A stretch of DNA of 58,462 nucleotides from Rhodobacter aestuarii (GTDB taxonomy: Bacteria > Pseudomonadota > Alphaproteobacteria > Rhodobacterales > Rhodobacteraceae). Numbering within the stretch: position 1 is the stretch's first letter; every line of letters starts with the position of its first letter. The notes below the pieces were generated by a model that was not told the origin of the DNA, made no database searches, and was given only the letters and a program-made list of their open reading frames with translations. Positions 336 through 58,445 of the stretch are shown in pieces. A program made the position numbers and the translations under genes. The DNA lies in assembly GCF_900156655.1 (NCBI RefSeq), contig NZ_FTOG01000015.1, forward strand, positions 1-58,462, read 5' to 3'.

Positions 336-1529
336 TCATGCGGCCTGCTCCCGCGGTGGTGCCCGTGAACGCGGCGTCTGTCCGTGCCGGAAGATCTCGA
401 TGATCCGCATCTGCGCGCCACAACAGGGGCATGGTTCGCGCAGGGACAGGGGGGCGGGTTCAGCCGCAGTTTTGGGCGCTGCCGCAGGTTGCGGCACCCC
501 GAGCAGGGCGCGGATCTTCGCGATATTGGCCTTGCGATTGGCGCTTGCCAGCAAGCCGTAATGCCGGATGCGGTGAAAGCCGTCGGGCAGGACATGGATC
601 AAGAACCGGCGGATGAATTCGTCGGTGGCGAGGCGCATCACCTTTTGCCGGTCGCCCTGCTTGATGCGGTAGTCCTTCCAGCGAAACGCCACGGTTCCGG
701 CGTCGGCGCTGAGCAGGCGGCTGTTCGAGATCGCGATGCGGTGGGTGTAACGGCTGAGATAGGCCAGCACCGCCTCGGGGCCGCCGAAGGGGGGCTTGGC
801 GTAGACCACCCATTCGGATTTGCGGAACGGGGCCAGCCAGGCGGCAAAGGCGGCGCTCTCTGCGAGCCCCGCCAGATCGCCGAAGAAGGCGAGATCCCCC
901 GCGCGGTGCAAGGCGATCAGCCCTTCAAGACAGAGGCGCCGGAACAAGCGCGACAGCACCCGCACATGAAGGAAGAATCCGGGCTTGCAGGCAATCCAGC
1001 GGGTGCCGTCGGGCGACAGGCCGCCGCCCGGAACGATCATGTGGATGTGGGGATGGTGGGTCAGCGCCGAACCCCAAGTGTGCAGCACCGCCGTCATGCC
1101 GAGCCGTGCGCCGAGGCGTTTGGGGTCGGCCGCGATGGTCATGACCGTTTCGGCCGAGGCGCGGAACAACAGGTCATAGACCGCCTTCTTGTTCCAATAG
1201 GCAATCTGCGCGATCTCGGCCGGCAGGGTGAAGACGACGTGGAAATATTCGACCGGCAGCAGGTCCTCGGCGCGCGCGGCCATCCAGTCGCGCGCCGCCG
1301 GCCCCTGGCATTTGGGGCAATGCCGGTTCTTGCAGGAGTTATAGGCGATGTGCTGGTGGCCGCAGTTGGCGCAACCGGCCACATGCCCGCCAAGCGCCTC
1401 GGTTCGGCAGGCTTCGATGGCCGACATCACCTTCAGCTGGGTCAGTCTGACATGCCCCGCATTGGCCCGTCGCCACGCCGGGCCATGGGTGCGGAAGATG
1501 TCAGCCAATTCCAGCTTTGGCCGGGGCAC
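336..1529 (-). CDS. IS91-family rolling-circle transposase
   Basis: The 397-residue product has the IS91/IS801 architecture. An N-terminal zinc-binding part shows CANCGHQHIAYNSCKNRHCP (about residues 53-72). The metal-binding HUH motif appears as HHPHIHMIVPGGG near residue 160. The YLSRYTHRIAISNSRL segment near residue 255 carries the tyrosine region, and the tail holds another cysteine cluster (PCPCCGAQ). It nicks one DNA strand and drives single-strand transposition. It lies 12 bp downstream of the recombinase and is probably co-transcribed. Length is usual for the family and no frameshift is seen, so it may be active. Confidence 0.93.
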   Translation of the reverse strand: MPRPKLELADIFRTHGPAWRRANAGHVRLTQLKVMSAIEACRTEALGGHVAGCANCGHQHIAYNSCKNRHCPKCQGPAARDWMAARAEDLLPVEYFHVVFTLPAEIAQIAYWNKKAVYDLLFRASAETVMTIAADPKRLGARLGMTAVLHTWGSALTHHPHIHMIVPGGGLSPDGTRWIACKPGFFLHVRVLSRLFRRLCLEGLIALHRAGDLAFFGDLAGLAESAAFAAWLAPFRKSEWVVYAKPPFGGPEAVLAYLSRYTHRIAISNSRLLSADAGTVAFRWKDYRIKQGDRQKVMRLATDEFIRRFLIHVLPDGFHRIRHYGLLASANRKANIAKIRALLGVPQPAAAPKTAAEPAPLSLREPCPCCGAQMRIIEIFRHGQTPRSRAPPREQAA

Positions 1530-1541
1530 CCCCGGTTGGGG

Positions 1542-2429
1542 CTATTGCGGACTTCGTTGCACGCTTTCATCGTGCAGCTTCGAGAGAGCCTCGAAGGGGC
1601 TGACCGTGCTGCGGATCGTCTTGGTGGCGACATGGGTGTACTGGGCGGTGGTGCTGAGCTTTGCGTGCCCCAGCAGCACCTGGATCACCCGGACATCTGT
1701 GTTTGCCTCCAGAAGATGGGTCGCGAAGCTGTGGCGCAGGGTGTGTAACGTGGCGGCCTTCTTCACCCCGGCCAGGGTCTTCGCCTCATGGAAGGCGCGG
1801 CTCAACTGGCGCGGAGAAATAGGGTTGATCCGGGGTTTGCCCGGGAACAACCATCCTTGGGGCCGCGCTTCGCGCCAGTAAGTGCGTAGAAGCTTCAGCA
1901 GGCTGGGCGACAGCATGACCTTGCGGTCTTTCTTACCCTTGCCCTGTTCGACATGGATCAGCATCCGGTCACTGTCGATGTCCCCGACCTTGAGGTTGCA
2001 GACCTCGGCGGCGCGCAGCCCGGCACCATAGGCGATGCTGAGCGCCGCCCGATACTTAAGCCCCGGCCCGGGGGCCGCCATCAGGATGTCGGAGACCTCC
2101 TCCACGCTGAACACCACCGGCAATCGACGCGGCTCCGGCCGGAACTGCATGAACCGCTTCATCTCCTCGCGCCCGCAGGTCATGCCAAAGAAGAACCGCA
2201 GCGCCACGATGCGGGTGTTGAAGGTCGACGGCGTGACCCCTGCATCGGTCATGTGCAGTTGATACGCGCGCAATTCCTCCGGCGTGGCGGTGTCGGGGGA
2301 GCGGTTCAGGAAGCGGGCGAAATCCTTGATGGCGCGGATGTGCGATTTCTGGGCTTTCTCGCCCATGCCCCGGATGCGCATGTCTTCGACCATCCGTTGG
2401 CGCAGCGGGGTGGTTCTTTCCTCCGTCAT
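1542..2429 (-). CDS. Tyrosine recombinase of the IS91-type element
   Basis: The 295-residue XerC/XerD-like recombinase has an N-terminal SAM-like core-binding domain (about residues 5-90) and a C-terminal catalytic domain. Visible catalytic parts are the first arginine in YGAGLRAAEVCNL, HTLRHSFATHLL (H-x-x-R), LLGHAKLSTT and the nucleophile in TTAQYTHV near residue 265. Proteins of this group accompany the IS91 transposase in several elements; their role in transposition is not well established. The start ATG follows a plausible ribosome site (AGGAGGTTCCC on the coding strand). Confidence 0.9.
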   Translation of the reverse strand: MTEERTTPLRQRMVEDMRIRGMGEKAQKSHIRAIKDFARFLNRSPDTATPEELRAYQLHMTDAGVTPSTFNTRIVALRFFFGMTCGREEMKRFMQFRPEPRRLPVVFSVEEVSDILMAAPGPGLKYRAALSIAYGAGLRAAEVCNLKVGDIDSDRMLIHVEQGKGKKDRKVMLSPSLLKLLRTYWREARPQGWLFPGKPRINPISPRQLSRAFHEAKTLAGVKKAATLHTLRHSFATHLLEANTDVRVIQVLLGHAKLSTTAQYTHVATKTIRSTVSPFEALSKLHDESVQRSPQ

Positions 2430-7969: not shown

Positions 7970-9571
7970 CTAGGGATTACGCCGCTGGAGCGCCACACGG
8001 TAACTGTAGGGTGCCACTTCCTCGACCGTCACCATATCCCCGGCGCGAACCCCATGCCGCTCGAAGAACTCCCGGATCCAGCTACGCTTGCGGAAGAACC
8101 GCTTGGCGCCGTCGAGGTCGGTCATGACCACAGTACCACCGCCCCAGTCGACGGCAATTTCGCGCTGGGCGGCCGAAGCACGGTTTGATCCACCGATTGC
8201 GTCCGCCGGAAACTTCTCGAAGAAACTCCTGAGGTAGATGTGGTTGTTGTCGATGTTGCCCTGCGTGATCTCGGTCGTGCCGATGTGGCGCGCAGCATGC
8301 TGACGCGGAACGGCGTTTGACGGCATTGATGCGGCCGCGGTTTCGCGGACGCGCATCACGGTTTCGTTTCCGTCCTCAATCAGGTCGAATTCCTCGTCGT
8401 CTGCAATCGTGATCTGGCCTGTCTGAACTCGAGGCCCCGTGCGAACAGGCTGAACGCCTTCGGCGCGCAGGACCACCTCTGCCGCTGCGCGGGCATCCTC
8501 GCCTGCGTCATGATGCTCGAACACGAGACCAAGGTGCTGCTTGAGGCTTGCGAGGCCATGGCCACCGTTGCCCCGCAACTCGGGCCAAGCGGCGCGGGCA
8601 ACATGGACGCTGTCGCGCCAGTCCCACTGAGGGGTCGGCAGGCCGCAGTTGCCACAGGCGGCAGCAATGGCGCTGCGATCAAAGCCGGAGTGCTGATAGA
8701 CCGTCCCGCCATTCAGCGCCTCCCGCAAGACCGAAAGCACCTCGGCAAAGGTCGGGGCGCCCTGCACCGTACGGGCACTGATCCCATGGAGGTAGGTGAA
8801 CACCCAGCGCTCCACCTGCGGGTCGACGTAAGTTACCCAGGTCTCGATAGAATTGTCGGGGCGCACGCAGGCAACACCGATCTGGCAAATACTGCCACGG
8901 TCGTTATTCGCCGTCTCGACGTCCAAAGCAAAGAAGCGGAACGGGCCCTCAGGAAAGGGCGTGACACGCGTCTGCCGGATGGCCGCGGGCTTCGGCGCAG
9001 GCGTCGCGACGGTACCAACCATCGAGGAAAGAAAACGCAGGCGCTGCCGCTCGATTGCGGCCAATTCCCGCGCCCCCCAGCCAAGGCGGCGCAGCGTCGC
9101 CTCAACCAGATCGACCGGCTCGTCATAGACCTGCATCCTGCGCCGGTTCCAGGCGATGGCGTGGTCGGGCGCGAGAGCGATGACCTCGGCCTCCAGCCGG
9201 GTGATGTCCACCGTGTCGGGCAAGGGAAGCCAGACCGCGCGGCAGTGATCGACGACGAATTCGTTGCGCAACGCCTTGGCAATGTCGCCATCCGCCTTGG
9301 TCAGCGCATCCTTGCGGTCGCGCCACATACGACCGGTGTTGTACATGGCCGAGAAGTAGTGGCTCATTCCTTCTGATCCGGTGCGATGGCGCTGATGAAT
9401 CCGCTCGTAAAAAGTCTGTTCCGTCGAACTGGTCGATCCAATGTAGCGCAGATCACCATGGTGATCGACGAGGCCGTAAAGGCCCCGCGCATCACGCGGC
9501 GCCTGAACTGTCGGGCGGGGCGCTGCTTCGAGCAGGGCAGAAAGCAGGTCATTGGCGGAGAAACACATCAT
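7970..9571 (-). CDS. GIY-YIG-like / DEDDh exonuclease fusion protein
   Basis: The 533-residue product has three regions. The N terminus (about 20-130) resembles a GIY-YIG fold: GLYGLVDHHGDLRYIGSTSS, then a basic helix with ERIHQRH. The middle (about 195-370) is a DnaQ-type 3'-5' exonuclease with FFALDVETANNDRGSICQIG, HSGFDRSAIAAA and the HDAGEDARAAAE motif carrying the last acidic residues. The C terminus (about 455-530) is a separate domain, TDLDGAKRFFRKRSWIREFF and onward, perhaps nucleic-acid binding. ATG overlaps the TGA of the upstream gene, so it is the third gene of a minus operon. Related UvrC/Cho-DnaQ fusions exist, but the ending here is not one I recognise. Confidence 0.75.
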   Translation of the reverse strand: MMCFSANDLLSALLEAAPRPTVQAPRDARGLYGLVDHHGDLRYIGSTSSTEQTFYERIHQRHRTGSEGMSHYFSAMYNTGRMWRDRKDALTKADGDIAKALRNEFVVDHCRAVWLPLPDTVDITRLEAEVIALAPDHAIAWNRRRMQVYDEPVDLVEATLRRLGWGARELAAIERQRLRFLSSMVGTVATPAPKPAAIRQTRVTPFPEGPFRFFALDVETANNDRGSICQIGVACVRPDNSIETWVTYVDPQVERWVFTYLHGISARTVQGAPTFAEVLSVLREALNGGTVYQHSGFDRSAIAAACGNCGLPTPQWDWRDSVHVARAAWPELRGNGGHGLASLKQHLGLVFEHHDAGEDARAAAEVVLRAEGVQPVRTGPRVQTGQITIADDEEFDLIEDGNETVMRVRETAAASMPSNAVPRQHAARHIGTTEITQGNIDNNHIYLRSFFEKFPADAIGGSNRASAAQREIAVDWGGGTVVMTDLDGAKRFFRKRSWIREFFERHGVRAGDMVTVEEVAPYSYRVALQRRNP

Positions 9572-10557
9572 CAAACTCCCGCGCACATAGACATCAACTG
9601 GCGGCGCTCGATGCGCTTCCAGTCCCGCCCGGAGACAATACCCCAGTTACCTGCCTCGTTCGGGCGGCGCCAGCGCGGGGTCGCCATCTTGTGCAAAGCG
9701 ATCAGCGCCTCGTCAAAGGAGGCATACTGTACCTCTTCACCCTTCGCACCGACCATGAACTTGCCGCCGCGCGCGAGGCCGGGATGGAAATGACTTCCAT
9801 CTGCGGCAACCGGCACGAAAACGACATCATCGGCAAAATCTGGGCTCGGCGCTTCGGGCGGCGTTTCATCGGGCTGCGGCCAGATCGAGGCAAAGAACTC
9901 CTTCCGCCCCTTGAGCCACGCCGCTGCGCTGGTGGCGGTTACACGCGAACCGACCTTTTCAAGCCCACCATCGTTACTCGAGAGGATGTTCCGGATCCGG
10001 CCTTCGGTTACACCGCCGAAAAGAGCGAGTGACTGAAGATCCACTTCACCGACACCGGTGTCGATGGCGCGCCGCGACAATGCGAGATTGATGATCCGCG
10101 CGATTACCCCCTGCGGCTCGGGCTGCGCAAACTGCCGGAACTGCTCCAGATGCCTGGCAAGTTCCTCGAGCCACCCGTCACGCTCGTCGAACCGAACCTC
10201 CTTCGGCGTGACGCCGTAGAGACCATAAATTCCGGCATTATCGATAAGCTTGGTACCAGTCCAATGGGGCGTAAGTACGGGGTCATAAGTCTCGAAAGCT
10301 TCGCGCCAAGTCTCACCTTCAACGTCGGGACCGTGCAGCAAGGCAAACAGATGCGGTGCAACTTCGTCTGCGCCGAGGATCAACTCGATCACGCGAAAAC
10401 GCGAGGCGAGCAACTCAAGCAACTCATGTCCATAGTCCCAGTTTGCGGTGTAGTCGCTGTTGGCAGCCAGCGCATAGCCAATCAGTTCGCGCTGAAACCA
10501 CGCCTCACGGCGTTCGTCGGCAGTCATCGTTTCCGGGGTAAGGTTGGGCATATTCAT
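9571..10557 (-). CDS. Hypothetical protein, 328 aa
   Basis: The start is taken as MNMPNLTPETMTADERREAW; a TTG five codons upstream overlaps the previous stop. The protein is soluble, acidic, with tryptophan-rich segments (AWLKGRKEFFASIWPQPDET) and a central part, GVTEGRIRNILSSNDGGLEK, that could be a helix-turn-helix. No family is recognised. It lies between a 70-residue gene and the exonuclease fusion with overlaps at both junctions, so the three act as one unit. Confidence 0.65.
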   Translation of the reverse strand: MNMPNLTPETMTADERREAWFQRELIGYALAANSDYTANWDYGHELLELLASRFRVIELILGADEVAPHLFALLHGPDVEGETWREAFETYDPVLTPHWTGTKLIDNAGIYGLYGVTPKEVRFDERDGWLEELARHLEQFRQFAQPEPQGVIARIINLALSRRAIDTGVGEVDLQSLALFGGVTEGRIRNILSSNDGGLEKVGSRVTATSAAAWLKGRKEFFASIWPQPDETPPEAPSPDFADDVVFVPVAADGSHFHPGLARGGKFMVGAKGEEVQYASFDEALIALHKMATPRWRRPNEAGNWGIVSGRDWKRIERRQLMSMCAGV

Positions 10558-10568
10558 GATCGTTTCTT

Positions 10569-10781
10569 TCAAGCGTTCAGGCGGCGGATCGCCGCGCGGA
10601 GATTGTGTCGCGCGCGATGATCGGAGGGCGTGGAAGCCGCGATGAGGAACCCTCTTTCAAAGTGGAGGGCGTAGTGACAGCCGCGCGGCTCGATATTGAG
10701 AAGCTCGACACCTTCAGCACGGCATAGCTGCTGATACTCTCTGACGACTTTCCGCATTGAGGTAAATTCCGTGATTTTCAC
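10569..10781 (-). CDS. Small HicA-like protein, 70 aa
   Basis: The start is GTG (10779-10781), preceded by GAGG. The product, ending RGFLIAASTPSDHRARHNLR and AAIRRLNA, resembles small double-stranded-RNA-binding-like or HicA-like proteins seen in Rhodobacterales phages, but without a clear catalytic histidine context. It is the first gene of the minus operon with the exonuclease fusion. Its role is unknown. Confidence 0.5.
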   Translation of the reverse strand: MKITEFTSMRKVVREYQQLCRAEGVELLNIEPRGCHYALHFERGFLIAASTPSDHRARHNLRAAIRRLNA

Positions 10782-12918: not shown

Positions 12919-14184
12919 TCATGCGGTCTTTCGGTCGCCCCGATCATTCCTGTCGTGAACCAACTGGGGCTTCGGCCGGAAGGCGTTGGCCACGGCATCG
13001 ACCCCGGCGCGCAGGGGTGAGTCCATCAGATGGGCATAGCGCAAGGTGGTCTGCATTTGGCTGTGCCCCAAGAGCTTGCCGATCATTTCCAGCGAGGCAC
13101 CGCCGCTGACCAGGAGCGAGGCAAAGGTGTGGCGCAGGTCATGGATGCGGACATCTTCTAGCCCGCATTGCTTCTGCACCCGCGCCCAGAACCGGCGCAG
13201 CTCCTGCACCGGCTGGCCGGGCGTGTCGCCGGGGAAGAGCCACGGCGAGCCCTTCGGCACCAGCAGCAGCCGCTGGCGCACGATCGCGGCGGTTTCGTCC
13301 GAGATTGGCACGCGGTGGGCGCGGCGCTGTTTCGTCATGGTCGGCGGCTTTGACCAACTCAGGTGTTCGAGGTTGAACTGTTCAAACCGGGCCTGCCGCA
13401 CCTCGCCGAGCCGCGCTCCGGTCAGCATGCACATCCGGATGATATCGGCCGCGCGCCGATCCTCGGCGGCGTCCAGCGCCGCGGCGAGGCTGGCGATTTC
13501 GTCTTTGGAGAGGAAGCGTTCGCGCGGGGTTTCGGTGCGGCGGTAGAAGCGCTGGGCGGGATTGTCCTCGCGCCAGCCCCACTGGACGGCCAGCGTGAAC
13601 ATCTTGCGCAGCATCTCCCCGACCCGGTTGGCGCGCACCGGCGTGGGCTTCGGCCCCTGCAATTTGCGCGCGCGGTTGTTGGGCTTTTCCTTGTGCGGGC
13701 GCGCCCGGCCTTCGGCAATTTGCGCCAGCAGCTTGTCAACGTCGCTCGGCGTGATTTCAGTCACCAGTTTGCGCGCCCAGAACGGGGCCACCAACTTCAT
13801 CAGTGACGAGCGCTGGTCCGCCGCATTATGGGCCGAGAGTTTCGGCAGATGTTCGGCGCAGTAGCGCTCGATCAGATCGGCAATGCGCGGAGCTTGACGT
13901 TTGGCCTCGCGCTGCCCCAAGGGATCGCCCCCGGCATCGATTTCGCGCCGCAGCTCCTTGGCCCGCTCGCGCGCGGCGGCCACCGACCATTCCGGCCAGC
14001 GCGCGAAGGTCATGCGCCGTTGCCGCCCGGCATGGCGGTAGTCGATGGTGAAGGCGCGCCCACCGCCACGGTAGATGCAGACGGCAAAACCGCGCAGATC
14101 GGTATCGAAGATCTGGTAATCGCGGCCGGGCGCAGGCTCGGCCTCGCGGAGCACTTTCTCGGTCAGCTTGATGCGTTCGGGCAT
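12919..14184 (-). CDS. int: Prophage tyrosine integrase
   Basis: Start chosen at MPERIKLTEKVLREAEPAPG, with AAGGA upstream; the open frame extends further but without support. The 421-residue protein is a P4-type integrase: an N-terminal DUF4102 arm-binding domain (1-90), SAM-like core-binding domain (about 110-210), and catalytic domain with TGARLGEVRQARF, HDLRHTFASLL, LLGHSQMQTT and nucleophile in TLRYAHLMD. It would recombine attP with the tRNA-fMet site. It lies 5.4 kb from attL, unusually far for a tRNA-site integrase, with accessory genes between. Confidence 0.93.
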   Translation of the reverse strand: MPERIKLTEKVLREAEPAPGRDYQIFDTDLRGFAVCIYRGGGRAFTIDYRHAGRQRRMTFARWPEWSVAAARERAKELRREIDAGGDPLGQREAKRQAPRIADLIERYCAEHLPKLSAHNAADQRSSLMKLVAPFWARKLVTEITPSDVDKLLAQIAEGRARPHKEKPNNRARKLQGPKPTPVRANRVGEMLRKMFTLAVQWGWREDNPAQRFYRRTETPRERFLSKDEIASLAAALDAAEDRRAADIIRMCMLTGARLGEVRQARFEQFNLEHLSWSKPPTMTKQRRAHRVPISDETAAIVRQRLLLVPKGSPWLFPGDTPGQPVQELRRFWARVQKQCGLEDVRIHDLRHTFASLLVSGGASLEMIGKLLGHSQMQTTLRYAHLMDSPLRAGVDAVANAFRPKPQLVHDRNDRGDRKTA

Positions 14185-14253
14185 GGTTCTGGTCCTTCTG
14201 GCATCCGACATGAGGCGTGGTTTCGCTTGAATTGCAAGCCAAGCACGCGGGCC

Positions 14254-14695
14254 GGGGCGGCGCACAGGCGCTGACCGGCAAAAAGATTGCCAGAGGCGTG
14301 CCACCCCTTGTTTTATTGGTGTTTTCGCATCGCCTCGCCGCCCAGCGCAGAGCCCCTTCAGCGTTTGAGGCCCGAATCTCCACGGAAGGAACCAGAGCGG
14401 CGTGGAATAACGCCGGTTTTCACCGCCGCAATTCTGTAAATCACCAAGGAAATCAGAGGGTGGCAAGGTGCGCGCGCCGGATGCCACCCCCCCTTTGCCC
14501 GCCAATGCCGGTAAATCATCTGTAAATCCGACTGTTCGCAGCCGGATGCAGTTTCGGGGCCGCGTGCGCCCGGCCGCCCCTCTTCACCGGCTTCCGCCGC
14601 GCCTTCGGTAAAATCGCGTTTTTGCCAATAAAACAAGGGGTGGCATGCCTCCGGCGCTCTCTGCGCCGGTCAGCGCCTATGCGCCACCCTTCCGG
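14254..14695. promoter_or_regulatory. int/xis control region with inverted and repeated sites
   Basis: TGCCACCCCTTGTTTTATTG (14299-14318) recurs inverted at 14626-14645, and similarity extends outward through GGCGCTGACCGGC on both sides, giving imperfect 65-base arms about 300 bp apart. In between, GGGTGGCA (about 14456) and TGCCACCC (about 14481) form a further inverted pair. The TGCCACCC core thus occurs at least four times between divergent int and the excisionase-like gene. No gene is supported in 14185-14756. Confidence 0.6.
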
Positions 14696-15253: not shown

Positions 15254-15645
15254 ATCGCCGCGGCACCCCCGAGGCCGATCTGCAGCGCGCCGTGGTGCAA
15301 GCCCTACGCGTCGCCCTGCCCCGTTCGGCCATCATTCACCACTGCGCCAACGAGGTGACCGAGGCCGGGCCCCGCGGGGCGAAGCGCCAGGCGATCCTCG
15401 TCGGTATGGGCGTTCATGCCGGGTTCGCCGATCTGATGATCCTGTGCGAAGGCCGCATCCTGTTTCTCGAGCTGAAGGCGCCCAAGGGGCGACTGCGGCC
15501 AGAGCAGGAGGCGTTTCGCGATGCGGTGCGGGCGCAGAGCTTCGGTTGGGCGTTGGTGCGCAGCCTCGAGGATGCGCTGCGCGCGGCGGCCGAGTTTGGG
15601 TTCACCACACGCGTCGTCCCTCCGCAGCGGAGGCCCGCGCCATGA
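15250..15645 (+). CDS. VRR-NUC domain nuclease
   Basis: The 131-residue product is a stand-alone VRR-NUC (PD-(D/E)XK) domain. The pattern GFADLMILCEGRILFLELKA supplies the D and ExK catalytic residues, and the basic N terminus with EADLQRAVVQALR is usual. Phage VRR-NUC proteins are thought to resolve branched DNA during replication or recombination. It overlaps neighbours by 4 bases on each side in the early operon. Confidence 0.88.
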   Translation: MNRRGTPEADLQRAVVQALRVALPRSAIIHHCANEVTEAGPRGAKRQAILVGMGVHAGFADLMILCEGRILFLELKAPKGRLRPEQEAFRDAVRAQSFGWALVRSLEDALRAAAEFGFTTRVVPPQRRPAP

Positions 15646-16649
15646 GCCACGAGGCCACCAACTGGGCGATCAAGCAGCGCGGGTTGAAGCCGACGACGAA
15701 GATCGTGCTCTGGCACCTCTGCGATCGGTTCAACCCTGATTACGGCTGCTTCCCCTCGCAAGACCGGCTGGCGCATGACTGCGAGATCAGCCGATCGACC
15801 CTGAACGATCACCTTGGCCAGCTCGAAACCCTGGGCCTGCTGCGGCGCGTGCCGCGGCTCGATCCAGTGACCAAGCGCCAGCTGCCCACCCGCTACATTC
15901 TGGGGTTTGAGCCGGGCTTCACACCTGTGGATGTGGTGCCGTGTCCGGAAATCGGACACGGAGAAACCCCGCGCGCAGAAAGCCCCGACAGCACAGACGC
16001 TTCGGCCATGGAAGGCCAGACCGACACCCTGCCGTGTCCGGATTTCGGACACGGGGATTGTGCCGGAGCCGTGTCCGATTTTTCGGGGACCCCGTGTCCG
16101 GAAAATGCCGAAAGCCGTGTCCGGATTTCGGACACTAACCCTGTAAGGGAACCTTTAAGAGAACCAGTAAAGGAGGAGGAGGGCGCGCAGGCGCGCGAGG
16201 CGATTTCCGATGAGGTGTTCGGGGCGCTGCTCGACGCGCTGGGCCTCGATCCCGCCGCCCTGCCCGGCTGGTGGCAAGGCTGGCCGCCCCGGCTACACGT
16301 TCAACGCTGGCGCGACGAGTTGGGGCTGACAGAGTCCGAGATCATCGCCGCCGCGGAGGCATCCCGCCAGGAACACCCCGAACCGCCCGATGGGCCGAAG
16401 GCGCTCGACCGTGCGATGCAGCGCGCAGCAGGGCGCAAGTCCGAGCATACCGGTGGGAAGCGCGGCAAGCCCAAGGCGCCCCCTGCCCCGCCCGCGCCCC
16501 CGATTTCCGATCCTGCCGCCTTCTACGCCGATCTGATCAACTCCGACCGCTACCTGCCGGTCAGCGCGATCAGCAACACCATGCGCGACGCCATGCTGGC
16601 CCGGGGGCTGGTCACGGCCGAACGCCTGCGCGAACGGGGCGTGCGATGA
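15642..16649 (+). CDS. Winged-helix replication protein with internal iterons
   Basis: The 335-residue product has an N-terminal helix-turn-helix (KTTKIVLWHLCDRFNPDYGC through SRSTLNDHLGQLETLGLLRR) as in phage replication initiators. A low-complexity linker (about residues 95-165) is encoded by repeated CCGTGTCCG sites. A C-terminal part, FGALLDALGLDPAALPGWWQ through DLINSDRYLPVSAISNTMRD, could be the partner-binding domain. This layout, DNA-binding N terminus, origin repeats inside the gene and interaction C terminus, is that of lambda O. The start overlaps the previous stop. Function is inferred from architecture. Confidence 0.7.
   Translation: MSHEATNWAIKQRGLKPTTKIVLWHLCDRFNPDYGCFPSQDRLAHDCEISRSTLNDHLGQLETLGLLRRVPRLDPVTKRQLPTRYILGFEPGFTPVDVVPCPEIGHGETPRAESPDSTDASAMEGQTDTLPCPDFGHGDCAGAVSDFSGTPCPENAESRVRISDTNPVREPLREPVKEEEGAQAREAISDEVFGALLDALGLDPAALPGWWQGWPPRLHVQRWRDELGLTESEIIAAAEASRQEHPEPPDGPKALDRAMQRAAGRKSEHTGGKRGKPKAPPAPPAPPISDPAAFYADLINSDRYLPVSAISNTMRDAMLARGLVTAERLRERGVR
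15939..16135. repeat. Origin-like iterons inside the replication gene
   Basis: CCGTGTCCG occurs five times on the plus strand: 15939, 16032, 16069, 16092 and 16115. In three cases it is followed after five bases by its complement (15939-15961 and 16032-16054 in full; 16115-16135 lacking the last two bases). The other two are half sites. The repeats account for the PCPEIGHG-like repeats in the protein. I infer a replication origin or a repressor cluster. Confidence 0.75.
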
Positions 16650-17682: not shown

Positions 17683-18726
17683 ATGTCATTCCGGTATATT
17701 GGCTCCAAGGCGCGCATCGTTGAAGCCATCATCGATCACATCGGCGCGCCTGACGGCGGTGTGTTCGTAGATGCCTTCTCGGGGACAGGAGCAGTTGCCG
17801 AAGCAGCGTCCCGCGCTGGCTGGCCCGTTCACGTTAACGATCATTTGGCTTCCTCGGCCATCATGTCCTACGCGCGCGTGACGTCCAAAGCCGATATCCC
17901 TTTTAAGGGGCTTTCGGGCTACAAAAACGCGATTGCCGCTCTTAATGAAGCAGTGCCCGTGCGCGGCTTCATTTGGCGCGAGTACAGCCCAGCATCATCA
18001 GGTCATTGCGACGTCTCCCGGATGTATTTCACCGAAGAGAACGCCCAAAAAATTGATGGCATGCGGCAGAATATTCGCGCCTGGCGGCAAGGCGATATAA
18101 TTACGCCAGATGAAGAGCGCGTTCTCATTGCCGATTTGATGCGCGCTTCAAACCGTGTCGCAAATACTGCCGGAACCTATGGCTGCTTCCTATCCAAATG
18201 GCAGAGGCAATCGCTAGATGCCTTGGTGATCGAGCCTGGTGAATATCTCGAGGTCTCTCCGCATGCGACCATGAGCACGCGAGACGTTCATCAGGTGCCG
18301 TGCAGGCCGGAGGATACGGTCTATCTAGACCCTCCCTACACCAAACGCCAATACGCAGCCTATTATCACATTCTTGAAACCATCGCCCTTGGTGATGAGC
18401 CTCAAGTTGAAGGGGTCTGCGGCATTCGTCCATGGCGAGAAAAAGCATCTGACTTTTGCTATAAAGTCAGAGCCGCGAAGGCTATTGAGCGTCTTATTTC
18501 TGAACTCCCGGCTCGCCGTATTTTTCTTTCCTATAGCACCGAAGGTCACGTCCCGATCAAATCGCTTTCCGATTCTCTAGCTGGCATCGGAGAACTCAGC
18601 GTTCACTCGCTCCAGAATATCGGTCGCTATCGCCCCAACAAAACCGCCAGCAAAGCCGCCTCCGACGTCGTAGAGCTGCTTTTCTGCATCGAAAAGACCA
18701 AGGAAGCAAAGCGCGCCGCCGCATGA
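17683..18726 (+). CDS. D12-class DNA adenine methyltransferase
   Basis: The 347-residue product is an N6-adenine methyltransferase of the D12 (Dam-like) class. The SAM-binding motif is FVDAFSGTGAVAEAASRAGW (residues 28-47), the catalytic motif is YLDPPYTKRQYAAYYHILE near residue 215, and the N terminus, FRYIGSKARIVEAI, holds motif X. It is the first gene of a five-gene run with 4-base overlaps and probably protects DNA from the downstream McrBC-like nuclease. It is longer than Dam (about 280). Confidence 0.9.
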   Translation: MSFRYIGSKARIVEAIIDHIGAPDGGVFVDAFSGTGAVAEAASRAGWPVHVNDHLASSAIMSYARVTSKADIPFKGLSGYKNAIAALNEAVPVRGFIWREYSPASSGHCDVSRMYFTEENAQKIDGMRQNIRAWRQGDIITPDEERVLIADLMRASNRVANTAGTYGCFLSKWQRQSLDALVIEPGEYLEVSPHATMSTRDVHQVPCRPEDTVYLDPPYTKRQYAAYYHILETIALGDEPQVEGVCGIRPWREKASDFCYKVRAAKAIERLISELPARRIFLSYSTEGHVPIKSLSDSLAGIGELSVHSLQNIGRYRPNKTASKAASDVVELLFCIEKTKEAKRAAA

Positions 18727-20954
18727 AACCATCGAGTACAGCTGAAGGTAAGCGCCTCGCAAAGGCCGATGCCTACATTTCTCAATGCCTGAAACGTTAT
18801 CGCGGGAATAGCGATGAGTTGCGCTTCCAACTCTTGGAAGCGGCATCCTCCCGCCTTGGTGGCTTTGATTTTCACGCATTTTGCTCAAAGTTCGCGATCA
18901 AACCTTTGATGGCTCCCGAGCGCCTGCTTAACGATGCGAAAACGCTTGTTCAGCTGTTGGATGATACCGGAATCCACCCCTCACTTTGCTTGAGCGCACT
19001 GGCTCGGGAAGCCCTTGATCACAGTGAGCAGCGAAATAGCGGTGCGTATCACACGGACTTTCGGCTAGCCCTGCATCTCGCTCACAGCGTTGAGGCGCAT
19101 TTCACGAAAGGGGCAAAGGTTCTCGATCCGGCCTGCGGTGCCGGGATATTGCTGACAGCCGTTTCCATCGTAGCCTGTGGACCGGATCGTCTACTAGCCA
19201 GCGAATGGCTTCGCGAGTCCGTTTATGCCGCCGATCTTTCAGCGTTCGCTCTACGTGGCACTCGGCTTTCACTTGCATCGCTCACTGATGACCTGGATGC
19301 CATTGCAGCGATGTACGCCCACTGGCGAGCACAGGACAGCCTGCTTGCCCCAGACGCCCGTTGGCTTGAGTTAAGCGAGGACGGTTTTGACGTTGTGATC
19401 GCGAACCCTCCTTGGGAAAAGGTCAAGCTTACAAGGCATGAATACGCCAAAGCGAACGGCGAAACCCGCGACTACGGAACGAGCTACCGCCTGCAATCGC
19501 TTGCTGGGTACGAAGAAGCCAAAACCGAGCGCGCCGCAATGGCGGGATCACTTATTGATCGCTACCCTGTCCTGGCAAAGGGCGAGCCTGATCTCTACGT
19601 CGCCTTTGTCGAGCTTCTTTACAAGCTGACGCGGGTAGGCGGACACGGTGCTCTCTTGGTTCCGGCGGGTCTGATCCGCTCGCTCAGCACTGAAACTCTG
19701 CGGCGGGCACTCGTAGAGGGTACGGATGATCTTGCCTTCACCATAATGGAAAATCGTGCACGGCATTTCGCCATCGACACGCGGTTTAAGTTTCTAGTCG
19801 TGAATTACCGCCGCAAGGCGAGTTCCAGCAAGGCGCTCGCGGCAGTGAAGATTGGCCATGCAACCGCCGATAGCGAGCGCGTGAAACCCGCCCCGCAGGT
19901 ACGTCTTGCGCTCAAGGATATCGAGCATTTGCGCTCCGACCTTACTCTTCCCGAGGTGCGCTCGGCAGAGGAATGGTATCTGTTCAAGAAAATGCAGAAT
20001 GGCGGGTTGGTGATCTCATCAGAGGATTCGTCTTGGTATCCCGAGTTTTGCCGTGAGATCGATATGACGCATGGCCGCCGTTACTTTGTTAAACGGCCAG
20101 AAAAAGGATGCCTTCCGGTCATTGAGGGCAGAATGGTCCAACCGCACCGTCTAGGGTGCAAATCTTACGTCTCTGGTGAAGGACGAAGCGCCGTTTGGCA
20201 AAATATTCAACCAGGACAAAGCCGGGTCGCTCCACAGTTCTGGCTGCCGTTAAGCGCAGCATCCGCAGAAGCCACGCGGCGCTCTCGGCGCATGCGCGTG
20301 GGCTTTTGTGATATCACAGGGCAAACTAATGAACGGTCTATGATGGCTGCGTTGATCCCGCCAGGAGTTATCTGCGGAAACAAGGTCCCGACGATTTCTT
20401 TTCCCAATGACCCATCGGATGATCGACTTTTCCTTTGGCTGGCCATTGTCAACTCTCTTCCCTTTGATTGGCTTCTTCGGCGCATCGTCACGACGACGGT
20501 AAATTACTTTGTCCTGCTCTCCCTTCGACTCCCCAACCTTGATATCAATTCACTACCTGCGCAGCGCCTGATTAGCGTCGCCCGAAAATTGCATGAGCTT
20601 GATCAGTCAAAAAATTCGAGCTTCGAGAATGTCTGGCGCATTGCCGAACTGCGCTGCGAAGCGGACGTTCTGGTCGCACGCGCATATGGTTGTTCCGAGG
20701 ATGACCTAAGGCTCATTTTGCAGGACTTTCCTCTGTTGGATCGCGGCCAACCCGCAATACATGGCGAGACATCGTCCACCATCACAGAAGACGTCCTGCT
20801 TTCGGCCTGGCTCCGGAACGCAGAAGCGGGAAATGAACAAAATGAACAAATCGCCCAGCGGGTAGAGCCCGCGCGCAAACTCGGCGCAATACCCTATGTC
20901 AGCTCCGAGTTCGTCAGCAATATTCGAGAAAAATTCAACGAGGTTGTGCGGTGA
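18723..20954 (+). CDS. Eco57I-type N6-adenine DNA methyltransferase
   Basis: The 743-residue protein has the Gamma-class layout: GAYHTDFRLALHL, SAM motif VLDPACGAGILLTAVSIVA (near residue 135) and catalytic VVIANPPWEKVKL (near residue 228). The C-terminal half, including DDRLFLWLAIVNSLPFDWLL and VNYFVLLSLRLPNLDINSLP, is the TaqI/Eco57I-type target recognition region. I see no PD-(D/E)XK nuclease motif, so it is probably a methylase only, not a type IIG enzyme. It overlaps both neighbours by 4 bases. Confidence 0.88.
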   Translation: MKPSSTAEGKRLAKADAYISQCLKRYRGNSDELRFQLLEAASSRLGGFDFHAFCSKFAIKPLMAPERLLNDAKTLVQLLDDTGIHPSLCLSALAREALDHSEQRNSGAYHTDFRLALHLAHSVEAHFTKGAKVLDPACGAGILLTAVSIVACGPDRLLASEWLRESVYAADLSAFALRGTRLSLASLTDDLDAIAAMYAHWRAQDSLLAPDARWLELSEDGFDVVIANPPWEKVKLTRHEYAKANGETRDYGTSYRLQSLAGYEEAKTERAAMAGSLIDRYPVLAKGEPDLYVAFVELLYKLTRVGGHGALLVPAGLIRSLSTETLRRALVEGTDDLAFTIMENRARHFAIDTRFKFLVVNYRRKASSSKALAAVKIGHATADSERVKPAPQVRLALKDIEHLRSDLTLPEVRSAEEWYLFKKMQNGGLVISSEDSSWYPEFCREIDMTHGRRYFVKRPEKGCLPVIEGRMVQPHRLGCKSYVSGEGRSAVWQNIQPGQSRVAPQFWLPLSAASAEATRRSRRMRVGFCDITGQTNERSMMAALIPPGVICGNKVPTISFPNDPSDDRLFLWLAIVNSLPFDWLLRRIVTTTVNYFVLLSLRLPNLDINSLPAQRLISVARKLHELDQSKNSSFENVWRIAELRCEADVLVARAYGCSEDDLRLILQDFPLLDRGQPAIHGETSSTITEDVLLSAWLRNAEAGNEQNEQIAQRVEPARKLGAIPYVSSEFVSNIREKFNEVVR

Positions 20955-21517
20955 GCAGTAGTTCGCAGACCATTGAGCGGGTTCTCCTTCAAAATATCGA
21001 AGACGGAGATCGCCGGAAGTTTATCGCCAAGTCAAATGACGCGGACAGCGGGGGCGGCGCTCGCGATCTGCGTTTTCGACCGGAAACCGAGTTCTTGCCT
21101 TTTTTTCGGCGCATGTTCCCGAACAAGACAACCAAGACCCGCAAGGCAAAAGGGGTCACTTCTCAAATTGAGGTTCTGAGTGGCACGGTCACTTGGCATG
21201 AACCGACTGGCGATAAGAGCGCCACGATGGAGATATGGCCTGCCACATACGCGCGCCCGAATGAATGCCGAATAGCACGCATCTCCGAGTTTGCTCTTGA
21301 TGGCTTGATCCAAAACGATCCCAATGGCGGTCGTTCGGTGTTCATGATGTTCCAGCAAGCCAATCGAGATATTTGGCTGTATTTCACGACCGAGACGAGC
21401 CTTCTTACCCAAAACTGGGACCCGAAGATCAAGAAGTTTGCGCAGGATTGGTTCGACGACGGGTGCAAGTCAGCCTTTCTAGACTTGGTAACAAAAGAGC
21501 AATACCCACATGGCTGA
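20951..21517 (+). CDS. Unknown protein of the McrBC-like operon, 188 aa
   Basis: The start is GTG overlapping the stop of the methylase, and the end overlaps the McrB-like start by 8 bases. The sequence is beta-rich with conserved-looking blocks ARDLRFRPETEFLPFFRRMF, IEVLSGTVTWHEPTGDKSAT and DIWLYFTTETSLLTQNWDPK. It resembles in size the separate DNA-binding or effector domains that McrB normally carries at its N terminus, which is missing from the next gene. I infer it supplies target recognition; I do not recognise the family. Confidence 0.65.
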   Translation: MSSSSQTIERVLLQNIEDGDRRKFIAKSNDADSGGGARDLRFRPETEFLPFFRRMFPNKTTKTRKAKGVTSQIEVLSGTVTWHEPTGDKSATMEIWPATYARPNECRIARISEFALDGLIQNDPNGGRSVFMMFQQANRDIWLYFTTETSLLTQNWDPKIKKFAQDWFDDGCKSAFLDLVTKEQYPHG

Positions 21518-22628
21518 CGCCAACGATATTCTGGACCTGCTTGAGAACCGCCGCAACGTCCTGATTGCGGGGCCGCCGGGCACGGGCAAGTCCATGCTGC
21601 TGAGCGAGGTTGCGAGCCTCTTTGAAGCCAAGGGGTACTCCAGCACGCCGACGCATCAACCAGGTGCACCAGTCCCCATCCCGCCAACGCCCACGACAAC
21701 GCTGCCGGGTGCAATCGGGACGTCCGCCAACCGGAAAGTTTTTCGCTGCGTTCTTCATCAGTCCAGCAAGTACCGGGATTTCCTGACAGGCGTGATGCCT
21801 GACGTCCGCGTCGGCACGCCGCCGGGCACGTTCAGAATTACCGAAGGCATTCTCTACCGTGCCAGTGAGTATGCAAAGCAGCCGGATAGCGCGGCGCTCC
21901 TCATTATCGATGAGATTAACCGCGGCCCGACCGTACAAGTATTCGGCGGAGCTATCGTGGCTATCGAATCCGACAAGCGCCTTGCGCCGGACGGCAAGCG
22001 GACGGCTGCAACACAGTTCTTCGATCTGATCAATCCGGTGGACGGTGATCTGATCGAGTATGCTTTTCCATCGCGGCTCTACATTCTTGCAGCAATGAAC
22101 CAGGCGGATGTCTCGGTCGAGCCGCTGGATGTAGCCTTCCTTCGTCGTTGGGCTCCGTTCAATCTGGAACCCAAATCTTCGGTCTTGCGAGCGCATTTCG
22201 GTGTTGCCGCGACACCGATGGCAAGTTTGCCACTGAGCCCAAGCTCGGCACACGATGTGAGCGAGGCTGCTATCCAAGCGTTCGATGCGATAAACCAAAG
22301 AATTGCGCTTGGACGAGGACCGGAATTTAGGATTGGTCATGGCGTGCTGATGGCCAACAATGCCAAACCCTCAAACGTGGCTGACGCTCTTGCTCATTTT
22401 GCGACAGCATGGCGGACGGTTAAAAATCACATCGATGAAGCGTTTTTCGGTGACGTACGCGGAACCGCGATCGTCTTGAACGCAGATCGCGGCATTGCCG
22501 GAAACCCCTACAGCTTGGAAGAGACGTCCTTCGGGGATGCGCCCCGTGCCATGATCAATGGTCCGGTGAGCATTGATGCTTCGCAGGTTTATGATCTGTT
22601 GGTCGCCTTGTCCCAAAAGGCGGTTTAG
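21510..22628 (+). CDS. McrB-like AAA+ ATPase/GTPase
   Basis: The 372-residue product has Walker A AGPPGTGKSMLLSEVAS (residues 20-36), Walker B LLIIDEINRGPTVQVFGG, and a sensor/arginine-finger block ILAAMNQADVSVEPLDVAFL followed by RRWAPF, as in McrB and MoxR-like motors. It is all motor domain, without the N-terminal DNA-recognition domain of classical McrB. With the McrC-like partner 5 bases downstream it should form a translocating nuclease. Confidence 0.85.
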   Translation: MADANDILDLLENRRNVLIAGPPGTGKSMLLSEVASLFEAKGYSSTPTHQPGAPVPIPPTPTTTLPGAIGTSANRKVFRCVLHQSSKYRDFLTGVMPDVRVGTPPGTFRITEGILYRASEYAKQPDSAALLIIDEINRGPTVQVFGGAIVAIESDKRLAPDGKRTAATQFFDLINPVDGDLIEYAFPSRLYILAAMNQADVSVEPLDVAFLRRWAPFNLEPKSSVLRAHFGVAATPMASLPLSPSSAHDVSEAAIQAFDAINQRIALGRGPEFRIGHGVLMANNAKPSNVADALAHFATAWRTVKNHIDEAFFGDVRGTAIVLNADRGIAGNPYSLEETSFGDAPRAMINGPVSIDASQVYDLLVALSQKAV

Positions 22629-22633
22629 TCGTC

Positions 22634-23923
22634 ATGCGCCAATGGCAGCGCTTTACAGCTATTGAGTATGCGAAGCCTTCGGCTCTCCACGAGGAAATTG
22701 CCAAGCGTGGCGATGTTTCCGCGTCGGCCGCGCGCGAGCTTTTGCTCCGTGCAGGAGACCGTGTACGCGGGATCCTCGGACTTGAGAGTGTTCCGCTATC
22801 CATTAATGCCGACCGCTTTCAGTTTCAGAATGTGGCAGGTTTGCTTGTCCTTGCGTCAGGTCTTGAGCTCGAGATTGCGCCGAAATTTCTCGGCAGTGCA
22901 CCCGGTTGGCGTGAGGACTTCTTCTTTCTAGCCACGCTTTCACACCATGGGCGGCTACTCGACAACGAGGGATTGAAATCATCGGCATCCGCGACTTCAG
23001 ATCTTGCGACACTGATCGGTCGCTCTCTCATCGAAATGTACTGGAAAAACCAGCGTAGACCACTGCGAACCTATCGCCGTTTGCCCCACAGCGAGTTTGC
23101 CATTGAAGGGGATTTTGATCCCGAGGATCTGTCTGTTCCAACGGAGGAAGGCTTTTCGCAATCGGTGACCTCCTTCACCCGCGAAAACCCCTACAATGCT
23201 GTAATCAGGGCGGCTGCGGCAGGTCTTGCGCCCATTGTACCCGACGTCGAAACCCGCGTACGTCTTGAGCGTCTTGCGCAACATCTTCCGCATCAGCAAA
23301 GGCCATCACGTCTTCAGGATAGGCGAATGCCGAGCCGTTCGCGCGCTTGGCAACCAACATTTGATCTTTCTCTCGACATCCTGCGGGGGCTTGGCGGGGC
23401 ATATGATCCGAAGAACGCTCTTGCGCCAGGCTACGTCATGCAGACATGGCAAGTTTGGGAGCAGCTCGTTTCGCTATCGCTCCGCAATGCGCTTATGCCC
23501 AAGAATGTGCTACTCCAGTCACCAAATAGGCTTGGGACGCGCACGCAGGATGGCGCAGTCAGAGTGCTTAACGTCGTTCCTGACGCTATCGCTACCGTTG
23601 CTGATTGTTCTGGGCAACGTCGGATCATCGTAGACGCAAAGTATAAGGGGCACGTAGATCGCTCCGCCACATCGATTTCCAATGCGGACATTTATGAATC
23701 TCTGGCCTTCTCTCGCGCGACTGGAATTTCTGAGGTGGTGCTTGTTTATCCAAGGCCGGTCAAGGAGGCGGTTCACTTTAGGGATGAGGTCGGCCACGCT
23801 GCCGAATTTTCGAGAGTTGAAGCAGATAGTATTTTGATTAGAGCGGTGGAAGTTGGCGTGCGTGGCATTTCGGGCCGAAGTGGCCTAAAAAATTTTACCG
23901 AAGCTCTCCGCCGCGTTTTATGA
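22634..23923 (+). CDS. McrC-like nuclease subunit
   Basis: The 429-residue McrC family protein has an N-terminal beta-rich region that contacts the McrB ring (FQFQNVAGLLVLASGLELEI, PKFL) and a C-terminal PD-(D/E)XK nuclease with NVVPDAIATVADCSGQRRII followed by VDAKYKG near residue 335. It cuts DNA when the motor is activated. It is the last gene of the run; the 3' flank soon becomes GC-rich again. Confidence 0.85.
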   Translation: MRQWQRFTAIEYAKPSALHEEIAKRGDVSASAARELLLRAGDRVRGILGLESVPLSINADRFQFQNVAGLLVLASGLELEIAPKFLGSAPGWREDFFFLATLSHHGRLLDNEGLKSSASATSDLATLIGRSLIEMYWKNQRRPLRTYRRLPHSEFAIEGDFDPEDLSVPTEEGFSQSVTSFTRENPYNAVIRAAAAGLAPIVPDVETRVRLERLAQHLPHQQRPSRLQDRRMPSRSRAWQPTFDLSLDILRGLGGAYDPKNALAPGYVMQTWQVWEQLVSLSLRNALMPKNVLLQSPNRLGTRTQDGAVRVLNVVPDAIATVADCSGQRRIIVDAKYKGHVDRSATSISNADIYESLAFSRATGISEVVLVYPRPVKEAVHFRDEVGHAAEFSRVEADSILIRAVEVGVRGISGRSGLKNFTEALRRVL

Positions 23924-24456: not shown

Positions 24457-25719
24457 ATGCACCTCGTCTTCGCGCCGAGCCAGGTTGAGTCCTGGCCGAT
24501 TGCCCGGCTGCGCCCCTATGCCCGCAATGCCAAGATGCACGGCGACGAACAGGTGGCGAAGATCGCCGCCAGCATGGCCAAGTTCGGCTGGACCGTTCCC
24601 TGCATGGTGACCGACGACGGCGAGCTAATCGCGGGCCATGGCCGCGTTCTGGCCGCGACAATGCTTGGGCTGACCGAGGTGCCGGTGATCCGGCTCAGCC
24701 ATCTCGACGAGGCCGAGCGCCGAGCCTACCGGATCGCCGACAACAAGCTGACGGAACTGGGCGAATGGGACGAGGCGATGCTGCGCGACGAGATCGCGGG
24801 GCTCTTGGCCGAGGATTTCGACCTGACGCTACTTGGCATCAGCGACGAGGATCTGGACGCCCTGTTGCGGGATCCCGAGGCGCTGGGCGGGGATGGTCCG
24901 GTCGAGGGCGAGGACGATGTTCCCGAGGTGCCAGTCACGCCGGTGTCGGTGCCGGGCGATCTCTGGCAGCTAGGTGCGCACCGGCTGATCTGCGGCGACA
25001 GCACTGCGGCCTATGTCGTGGGGCGGCTGCTGGGTGATGTGCGCCCCCTGCTGATGGTCACCGACCCGCCCTACGGCGTGGAGTACGATCCCTCCTGGCG
25101 CAACCAGGCGGGGGCCGCGAAGACGAAACGCACCGGCAAGGTGCTGAACGACGACCGCGCCGACTGGCGCGAGGCATGGGCTCTGTTCCCCGGTGACGTC
25201 GCCTATGTCTGGCATGGGGCGCTGCACGCGGCGACCGTGGCGGAAAGCTTGGCGGCCGCGGGTTTCGCTATCCGGTCGCAGATCATCTGGGCGAAGGACC
25301 GGCTGGTCCTCAGCCGCGGCGATTACCACTGGCAGCACGAACCCTGCTGGTATGCGGTGCGCGCGAAGGGCAAGGGCCATTGGGCCGGGGACCGAAAGCA
25401 GACCACGCTGTGGCAGATCGCCAACAGGGATCAGGACGCTGACACCGTGCATGGCACGCAGAAGCCGGTGGAATGCATGCGCCGTCCGATCCTGAACAAC
25501 TCGAGCCCCGGCCAGGTGGTCTACGAGCCCTTCATGGGATCCGGCACCACGCTGATCGCGGCCGAAACGACGGGGCGGGTCTGCTTCGGGGTCGAGTTGA
25601 ACCCGGCATATGTGGATGTGGCCATCGAACGTTGGCAGTCCTTCAGCGGCCAAGAGGCGATGCTGGCGGAAACCGGCGAGACCTTCGCCGCCCTCAAGGC
25701 CAAGCGGCTCGCTGCATGA
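24457..25719 (+). CDS. ParB-like nuclease domain / DNA methyltransferase fusion
   Basis: The 420-residue protein has an N-terminal ParB/Srx-like domain (ARLRPYARNAKMHGDEQVAK, ELIAGHGRVLAATMLGL, residues 14-100) and a C-terminal beta-class N4/N6 methyltransferase with TDPPYGVEYDPSW (near 202) and the SAM motif EPFMGSGTTLIAAETTGRVC (near 360). Fused ParB-methylases are common in Alphaproteobacteria phages and may protect phage DNA or mimic host methylation. Its GC content matches the structural genes, not the restriction operon. Confidence 0.9.
   Translation: MHLVFAPSQVESWPIARLRPYARNAKMHGDEQVAKIAASMAKFGWTVPCMVTDDGELIAGHGRVLAATMLGLTEVPVIRLSHLDEAERRAYRIADNKLTELGEWDEAMLRDEIAGLLAEDFDLTLLGISDEDLDALLRDPEALGGDGPVEGEDDVPEVPVTPVSVPGDLWQLGAHRLICGDSTAAYVVGRLLGDVRPLLMVTDPPYGVEYDPSWRNQAGAAKTKRTGKVLNDDRADWREAWALFPGDVAYVWHGALHAATVAESLAAAGFAIRSQIIWAKDRLVLSRGDYHWQHEPCWYAVRAKGKGHWAGDRKQTTLWQIANRDQDADTVHGTQKPVECMRRPILNNSSPGQVVYEPFMGSGTTLIAAETTGRVCFGVELNPAYVDVAIERWQSFSGQEAMLAETGETFAALKAKRLAA

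Positions 25720-58365: not shown

Positions 58366-58445
<80 letters not shown>

What the first reader, a model, noticed from the sequence alone, without database searches (positions are those of the whole stretch)
17683..23923. Five-gene restriction operon: two N6-adenine methylases, an unknown protein, and McrB- and McrC-like subunits
Seen: tight overlaps link a D12 methylase, an Eco57I-type methylase, a 188-aa protein of unknown family, an AAA+ motor without DNA-recognition domain, and McrC with a PD-(D/E)XK nuclease. Known: classical McrBC cuts methylated DNA and has no methylase; LlaJI couples two cytosine methylases to McrBC-like subunits. Inferred: an adenine-methylation version in which modification protects and McrBC cuts unmodified DNA, with the 188-aa protein as the specificity factor. 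The AT-richer composition marks it as an inserted cassette.
Basis: partly seen in the sequence, partly recalled or inferred. Interest (0 to 1): 0.8.

Follow-up and report, generated by a model that had tools for sequence, protein, structure and literature searches.

The report
Restriction operon with detached DNA-reading subunit
A prophage carries a compact five-gene DNA-cutting defence system in which two adenine methylases probably mark self DNA, a small separate protein with a known DNA-reading fold probably finds unmarked sites, and a motor with a nuclease cuts there; the same five genes recur in distant bacteria, and the reading subunit has been exchanged on its own.

Summary
The five ORFs are real and at the stated coordinates. 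The 188-aa protein (X), without a match in Pfam, PADLOC, NCBIfam, PHROGs or PDB sequences, is predicted with good confidence to be a stand-alone B3 DNA-binding domain. Its nearest solved folds are LlaJI.R1-NTD, BfiI-C, UbaLAI-B3, EcoRII-N and plant B3 domains; a model of a distant Bacteroidota X gives much the same list. So X is most likely the target-recognition subunit that LlaJI carries fused to its McrB-like motor. Of 43 loci found through X (seven phyla), 40 have the order M1-M2-X-McrB-McrC; the other three are cut by record ends. Motor, nuclease and methylase motif-IV residues are kept.

Best reading: a LlaJI-like restriction-modification system with two m6A methylases and a split B3 specificity subunit. 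Precedents limit novelty: LlaI and BsuMI have AAA-only subunits in three-ORF cassettes; LlaJI and PcaRCI pair McrBC-like nucleases with methylases. I found no name for this five-gene family.

Unexpected: X was exchanged between operons whose methylases, motor and nuclease stayed put (AU p about 0.0005 each way), hard to square with X simply tracking methylase specificity. Function is untested.

The parts
17683..18726 (+). M1: D12-class (alpha) N6-adenine DNA methylase, 347 aa; DPPY at residue 216, FSGTG at residue 32
18723..20954 (+). M2: Eco57I/gamma-class N6-adenine DNA methylase, 743 aa; NPPW at residue 228; nearest curated family Alw26I/Eco31I/Esp3I M (below cut-off)
20951..21517 (+). X: 188-aa stand-alone B3-fold protein (predicted), likely DNA-recognition subunit
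   Evidence: divergent homologue
21026..21067 (+). X residues 26-39, loop AKSNDADSGGGARD between first helix and strand 2; the most conserved stretch, at the place of the B3 'N-arm' (arm name and place recalled)
21239..21265 (+). X residues 97-105, loop PATYARPNE before strand E106-108; second most conserved loop, at the place of the B3 'C-arm' (arm name and place recalled)
21510..22628 (+). B: McrB-like AAA+ NTPase without N-terminal recognition domain, 372 aa; GPPGTGKS at 21, DEINRG at 134, NQAD (NxxD class) at 197
22634..23923 (+). C: McrC-like subunit, 429 aa, PD...DAK nuclease motif from residue 316

Best explanation
A restriction-modification system of the McrBC-like (LlaJI-like) kind. 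M1 and M2, both N6-adenine methylases, most likely mark the two strands of one asymmetric site in the host. X, a free-standing B3 domain, binds that site when it is unmodified, in the role that the fused N-terminal B3 domain has in LlaJI.R1. DNA-bound X loads the McrB-like AAA+ ring, which has no recognition domain of its own and recruits and drives the McrC-like PD-(D/E)XK nuclease to cut incoming DNA. Shown here by computation: gene content, motifs, conserved order, predicted fold of X, independent exchange of X. Inferred: binding of the site by X, docking of X on the ring, methyl-sensitivity, translocation or activation, cleavage, phage defence.
Confidence: 0.77

Rival explanations
1. X is a shared specificity subunit in the manner of Type I HsdS: it directs both the methylases and the nuclease, so swapping X changes the site for modification and restriction together and needs no change in M1 or M2.
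For: X alleles replaced while M1, M2, B and C stay: L004 versus L015 M1 93, M2 89, B 84, C 89%, X 49%; 32 residues shared only by L014 and L015 in X against 0-2 in each other gene.
Against: M1 and M2 are full-length single-chain methylases (347 and 743 aa); D12 and Eco57I-type enzymes normally carry their own target recognition (recalled). The N loop of X is nearly invariant across alleles, which argues for a shared half-site.
Confidence: 0.12
2. Modification-dependent (Type IV) restriction: McrBC with X reading foreign modified bases, M1 and M2 serving another role.
For: B and C are McrBC homologues; classical McrBC cuts modified DNA.
Against: McrB lacks the modified-base domain; X has a B3 fold as in BfiI, EcoRII and LlaJI, which read unmodified sequence; both methylases are present in all 40 complete loci; adenine methylases in one operon with an enzyme cutting their product would be self-lethal (inference).
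Confidence: 0.06
3. Modification-based defence without cleavage at the site (BREX-like exclusion), with X/B/C blocking phage replication.
For: M2 has weak similarity to PglX (E 0.005) and to MAD2 (E 2.3e-14).
Against: None of the five genes matches another BREX or MADS core component strongly; PD-(D/E)XK residues kept in 41 of 41 C proteins.
Confidence: 0.03

Closest known systems
LlaJI (Lactococcus lactis pNP40; H. pylori LlaJI.R1 structure 6c5d)
   Same: Two methylases plus an McrB-like motor and an McrC-like PD-(D/E)XK nuclease in one operon; B3-type recognition; targets unmodified DNA (PMC1459862 and PMC12707154, passages). The top VIA-align row for both X models is LlaJI.R1-NTD.
   Different: LlaJI methylases are m5C; its recognition domain is fused to the motor (R1 585 aa); four genes, not five. 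C of this system is not matched by any NCBIfam model at E<=1, while several plasmid nucleases seen here are annotated 'LlaJI family'.
LlaI (pTR2030) and BsuMI (B. subtilis)
   Same: AAA-only McrB-like subunits of 337 and 343 aa in three-ORF restriction cassettes (PMC1459862 section 5). LlaIM is recalled to be a bifunctional m6A methylase.
   Different: A probable LlaI locus (L072, 337-aa AAA, beside AbiA) has a 252-aa ORF before the motor with no detectable similarity to X (hhalign probability 0.2%). BsuMI methylases are m5C (recalled); its sequence was not obtained. Whether their third ORFs are B3 folds is untested.
PcaRCI (Pectobacterium)
   Same: McrBC-like nuclease pair in a mobile R-M system that restricts unmethylated DNA (PMC8989522, abstract and section 22).
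   Different: Single Dcm-like m5C methylase; recognition domain in the motor chain.
Methylase-associated McrBC branches of Bell et al. 2024
   Same: McrB-like GTPases with DNA methylases noted as a prevalent, probably ancestral association (PMC11090510 passages); B here is of the NxxD class.
   Different: Those branches were left to a forthcoming paper; no passage seen describes this five-gene order or a stand-alone B3 protein.
E. coli plasmid pTE_T100_3 locus (L074)
   Same: LlaJI-family nuclease, AAA motor and two annotated DNA adenine methylases.
   Different: Motor of about 600 aa, so with room for an N-terminal domain; methylases on the opposite strand; no separate X annotated.

Membership tests
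LlaJI-type R-M system | McrB-like AAA+ motor plus McrC-like PD-(D/E)XK nuclease in an operon with two methylases | tested here: met
LlaJI-type R-M system | Methylases of the 5-methylcytosine kind | tested here: not met
   M1 D12 and M2 Eco57I/N6_Mtase families, both N6-adenine
LlaJI-type R-M system | B3-type recognition domain | tested here: met
   fold of X, by predicted structure only
LlaJI-type R-M system | Recognition domain fused to the motor in one R1 chain | tested here: not met
   B is 372 aa with its P-loop at residue 21; X is a separate ORF in 43 of 43 loci
LlaJI-type R-M system | Cleaves unmethylated DNA at an asymmetric site | not testable with these tools
   needs biochemistry
Type IV McrBC | No cognate methylase | tested here: not met
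   two methylases in all 40 complete loci
Type IV McrBC | Modified-base-binding domain at the N terminus of McrB | tested here: not met
   no room before the Walker A at residue 21
B3 DNA-binding superfamily (X) | B3 pseudobarrel fold | tested here: met
B3 DNA-binding superfamily (X) | Detectable sequence similarity to known B3 proteins | tested here: inconclusive
   no hit in Pfam, PDB sequences, PHROGs
B3 DNA-binding superfamily (X) | Sequence-specific DNA binding | not testable with these tools
   needs biochemistry
LlaI/BsuMI three-ORF cassettes | AAA-only motor in a restriction cassette of three ORFs | tested here: met
   gene architecture against PMC1459862 section 5
LlaI/BsuMI three-ORF cassettes | Third ORF homologous | tested here: inconclusive
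   a single LlaI-like ORF shows no similarity to X; BsuMI not obtained
Alw26I/Eco31I/Esp3I R-M family | M2 above TIGR02987 cut-off (a matching TIGR02986 nuclease beside it is recalled as the second criterion) | tested here: not met
   M2 100.5 of 353.5 bits; no NCBIfam match for C, which is McrC-like in Pfam

The most novel reading that the evidence does not exclude
The system has a cassette-swappable B3 reading subunit: the operon keeps its methylases, motor and nuclease and trades only X (with the adjoining 5' end of the motor gene in some cases). Either X serves as a common targeting subunit for modification and restriction, a B3-based equivalent of HsdS, or X keeps the site (nearly invariant N loop) and changes its outer surface to escape phage anti-restriction proteins.
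Probability: 0.25. Interest if true: 0.8.

Novelty: new variant of a known kind. Interest (0 to 1): 0.55.

Why it matters
It gives a likely fold and function to a small protein family that no family library searched here knows, and separates into single genes the parts (reader, motor, nuclease, two methylases) of which reader and motor are fused in LlaJI. That makes it a clean system to ask how a B3 reader loads a McrB ring and why methylation stops it.

Tried and rejected
No family match for X in Pfam, PADLOC, NCBIfam, PHROGs or PDB sequences; the BFVD fold search gave nothing at E 0.001 or below. Phage records: no match for X at 0.01 or for M2 at 1e-10.

Plasmids hold 14 records with M2 matches: six are this system, eight are distant (24-30% identity). 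I fetched four of those eight; in the three with annotation M2 matches the C-terminal part of about 1,310-1,350-aa proteins near helicase genes, and the fourth is unannotated with an ORF of similar kind. Same-genus hit L049 is a 1476-aa open frame, also not this system.

LlaI comparison: no similarity of its 252-aa ORF to X, one sequence only; a viral-contig scan for relatives of it found none.

Co-variation scan of 40-aa windows against X: among 111 close pairs the five best of 175 windows lie in B residues 1-80 (r up to 0.55); among 14 representatives M2 671-710 ranks 1st, B 31-70 2nd, M2 361-400 3rd of 175. Windows were judged after seeing the scan, pairs are not independent, and B 1-80 adjoins X in the DNA, so shared recombination tracts explain it as well as docking does. 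Not used as evidence.

Second possible exchange (gammaproteobacteria-rich clade): X differs far more than the other genes (L021/L025: M1 97, M2 90, B 91, C 96, X 57%), and the four-gene data reject the X grouping L006+L017+L021 (p 1.6e-6), but the X data reject L021+L025 only at p 0.064 and L021+L025+L005 at 0.037. So divergence there may be fast change rather than exchange.

No att-like direct repeat tied to the tRNA-Met: the only shared 14-base word between 9-15.5 kb and 53-58.5 kb lies elsewhere.

Papers not held: PMC6066307 (LlaJI.R1 structure), PMC176565 (LlaI), PMC3973309 (BfiI-C). What I say of B3 arms, BsuMI methylases and LlaIM chemistry is recalled.

Full report
WHAT IS THERE. The window's five ORFs are as described: M1 17683-18726, M2 18723-20954, X 20951-21517, B 21510-22628, C 22634-23923, all on +, with overlaps of 4, 4 and 8 nt and then a 5-nt gap. 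Families: D12 methylase; Eco57I/N6_Mtase methylase; nothing for X; AAA_5; McrBC (PF10117). B has its P-loop (GPPGTGKS) at residue 21, then DEINRG and NQAD, the McrB signature of the NxxD class that Bell et al. describe (PMC11090510 passages). C keeps PD...DAK.

SETTING. The cassette is at 53-58% G+C, against 68-69% just left and 63-67% just right of it; other AT-richer patches exist in the window. It lies between a phage replication-initiation protein (15642-16649) with an unknown phage protein (phrog_9306, ending at 17320) on the left, and a ParB/N6_N4 methylase (24457-25719, phrog_498) on the right; an integrase is at 12919-14505. The replication gene has DNA similarity to Rhodobacter and Labrenzia phages (12 records). 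In phage RcKai the matched gene is followed by another HTH gene and a DNA methylase, with no such cassette. A contig carrying the same five genes at 100% protein identity is listed as viral in IMG/VR (L002). Within the flanks held for the other loci, six phage genes of the window (five neighbours and the terminase) were met together only in that contig (L002/L054); L018 and L026 gave one weak hit each. So the relatives carry the cassette in other settings.

CONSERVATION. X finds 35 loci in one genome each of 84,980 species, 6 plasmid records and 3 viral contigs. I analysed 43 loci (five of the six plasmid records were fetched): 40 hold all five genes in the same order and strand; L008, L011 and L013 are cut by record ends. 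L008's circular plasmid has M1 and M2 across its origin, with an IS66 element between M2 and X. Several loci are near-duplicates (L005/L030/L031; L009/L032/L033/L034; L037/L040; L002 is the window's element); 36 rows, window included, went into the trees. Phyla, from record titles and the tree's labels: Pseudomonadota, Vulcanimicrobiota (Eremiobacterota in the title), Thermodesulfobacteriota, Actinomycetota, Myxococcota, Bacteroidota, and Gemmatimonadota by one cut locus. All of these were found through X. As a check, M2 found 9 viral loci: 5 uncut orthologous ones all carry X, B and C (three are contigs already known through X; L058 and L060 are new), 2 end with M2, and 2 are distant proteins of another kind. 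The four orthologous M2 loci of the order sample also have M1, X and the start of B. The system is rare and patchy: M2 is found in 5 of 390 genomes of the order at E 1e-30 (one of them a different 1476-aa protein), and at E 1e-40 in 1 of 398 of the phylum sample and 1 of 385 of the class sample, the last two being the window's own genome.

THE EXCHANGE OF X. Pairwise identities of M1, B and C track M2 (r 0.97 each); X does less well (0.90; 861 pairs). Two operons show why. L015 is closest to L004 in M1/M2/B/C (93/89/84/89%) but only 49% in X; L014 groups with the window (84/80/87/86%) but has 58% in X; L014 and L015 share an 8-residue deletion and 63% of X. Residues found only in L014 and L015 among eight close loci: X 32, M1 1, M2 2, B 1, C 0; in a similar count over seven loci, other cross-clade pairs have at most 7 in any gene. 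X data reject a clade of the window, L035, L003, L010 and L014 (p 0.0005) and the L004+L015 clade (p 0.0006); the four-gene data reject L014+L015 (p 0.0004). These groups were named after seeing identities and trees, which the AU test does not allow for. DNA identity dips over X: in L004/L015 from the end of M2 to about 200 nt into B, in W/L014 from late in M2 to a point inside X. The N loop is kept in both X types; the second loop differs (PATYARPNE against PPYPSRPFE). So either both types read one site, or half of it changed while the methylases did not.

MECHANISM. Best reading (0.77): a LlaJI-like R-M system with m6A protection and a detached B3 reader, as set out in Best explanation. For it: both methylases in all 40 complete loci, and L015, where an IS66 element (transposase PF03050 E 1.8e-97) splits McrC while both methylases are full length. 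LlaJI supplies the model: R1 is the sole specificity subunit, R2 the nuclease, unmethylated DNA the target.

NOVELTY. The kind is known. LlaJI and PcaRCI unite methylases with McrBC-like nucleases; AAA-only motors in three-ORF cassettes were noted for LlaI and BsuMI in 2006; an E. coli plasmid pairs a LlaJI-family nuclease with two adenine methylases; Bell et al. announce methylase-associated McrBC branches as a forthcoming paper. Nine paper searches listed no paper whose title or shown abstract names this five-gene set or a stand-alone B3 subunit for a McrB-like motor; most subscription papers are not held, and REBASE was not searchable. Hence 'new variant of a known kind'. Papers seen: PMC8989522 (abstract, section 22), PMC1459862 (section 5, passages), PMC11090510, PMC12707154, PMC4267653 and PMC4081073 (passages); all others as listings only.

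Noticed in passing
window 54554-58226: A Gabija pair, GajA (PADLOC E 8.7e-268) and GajB (3.1e-226), at the far end of the same prophage region next to tRNA-Met 58369-58445: a second defence system beside the first.
   Followed up: partly
window 336-2429: An IS91-type transposase (Zn_Tnp_IS91 E 3.9e-33, 336-1529, -) and a phage-integrase-family recombinase (E 5.8e-42, 1542-2429, -) at the left edge of the window.
   Followed up: partly
window 7970-10572: Two minus-strand ORFs, one with a DEDDh exonuclease domain (PADLOC DEDDh E 2.2e-20, PDC-S48 2.1e-17), the other (9571-10572) without a PADLOC match.
   Followed up: no
L007:8930-9691: In Pimelobacter the cassette is followed at once by an Endonuclease VII domain protein (Pfam E 4e-11), a possible sixth gene.
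   Followed up: no
L015:8656-11334: An IS66 element (529-aa transposase frame at 8958-10544, -) splits the McrC gene while both methylases are full length.
   Followed up: partly
L078 (pDE3 66500-73561) and L008: In plasmid pDE3 an IS66 element lies between M2 and X, and X there starts later than in its near-identical relatives; M1, M2, B and C are all present.
   Followed up: partly
L009:7714-8817: C is 367 aa here but 427 aa in operons otherwise identical in M1, M2, X and B (L032-L034), so it ends early in this copy.
   Followed up: no
L072:2128-10661: A Lactococcus plasmid carries a probable LlaI restriction cassette beside AbiA, with its adenine methylase in pieces.
   Followed up: partly
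L069:1-7129: A Lactiplantibacillus plasmid pairs a LlaJI-family nuclease and AAA motor with a cytosine methylase plus an Eco57I-type methylase on the opposite strand: a mixed methylase set.
   Followed up: no
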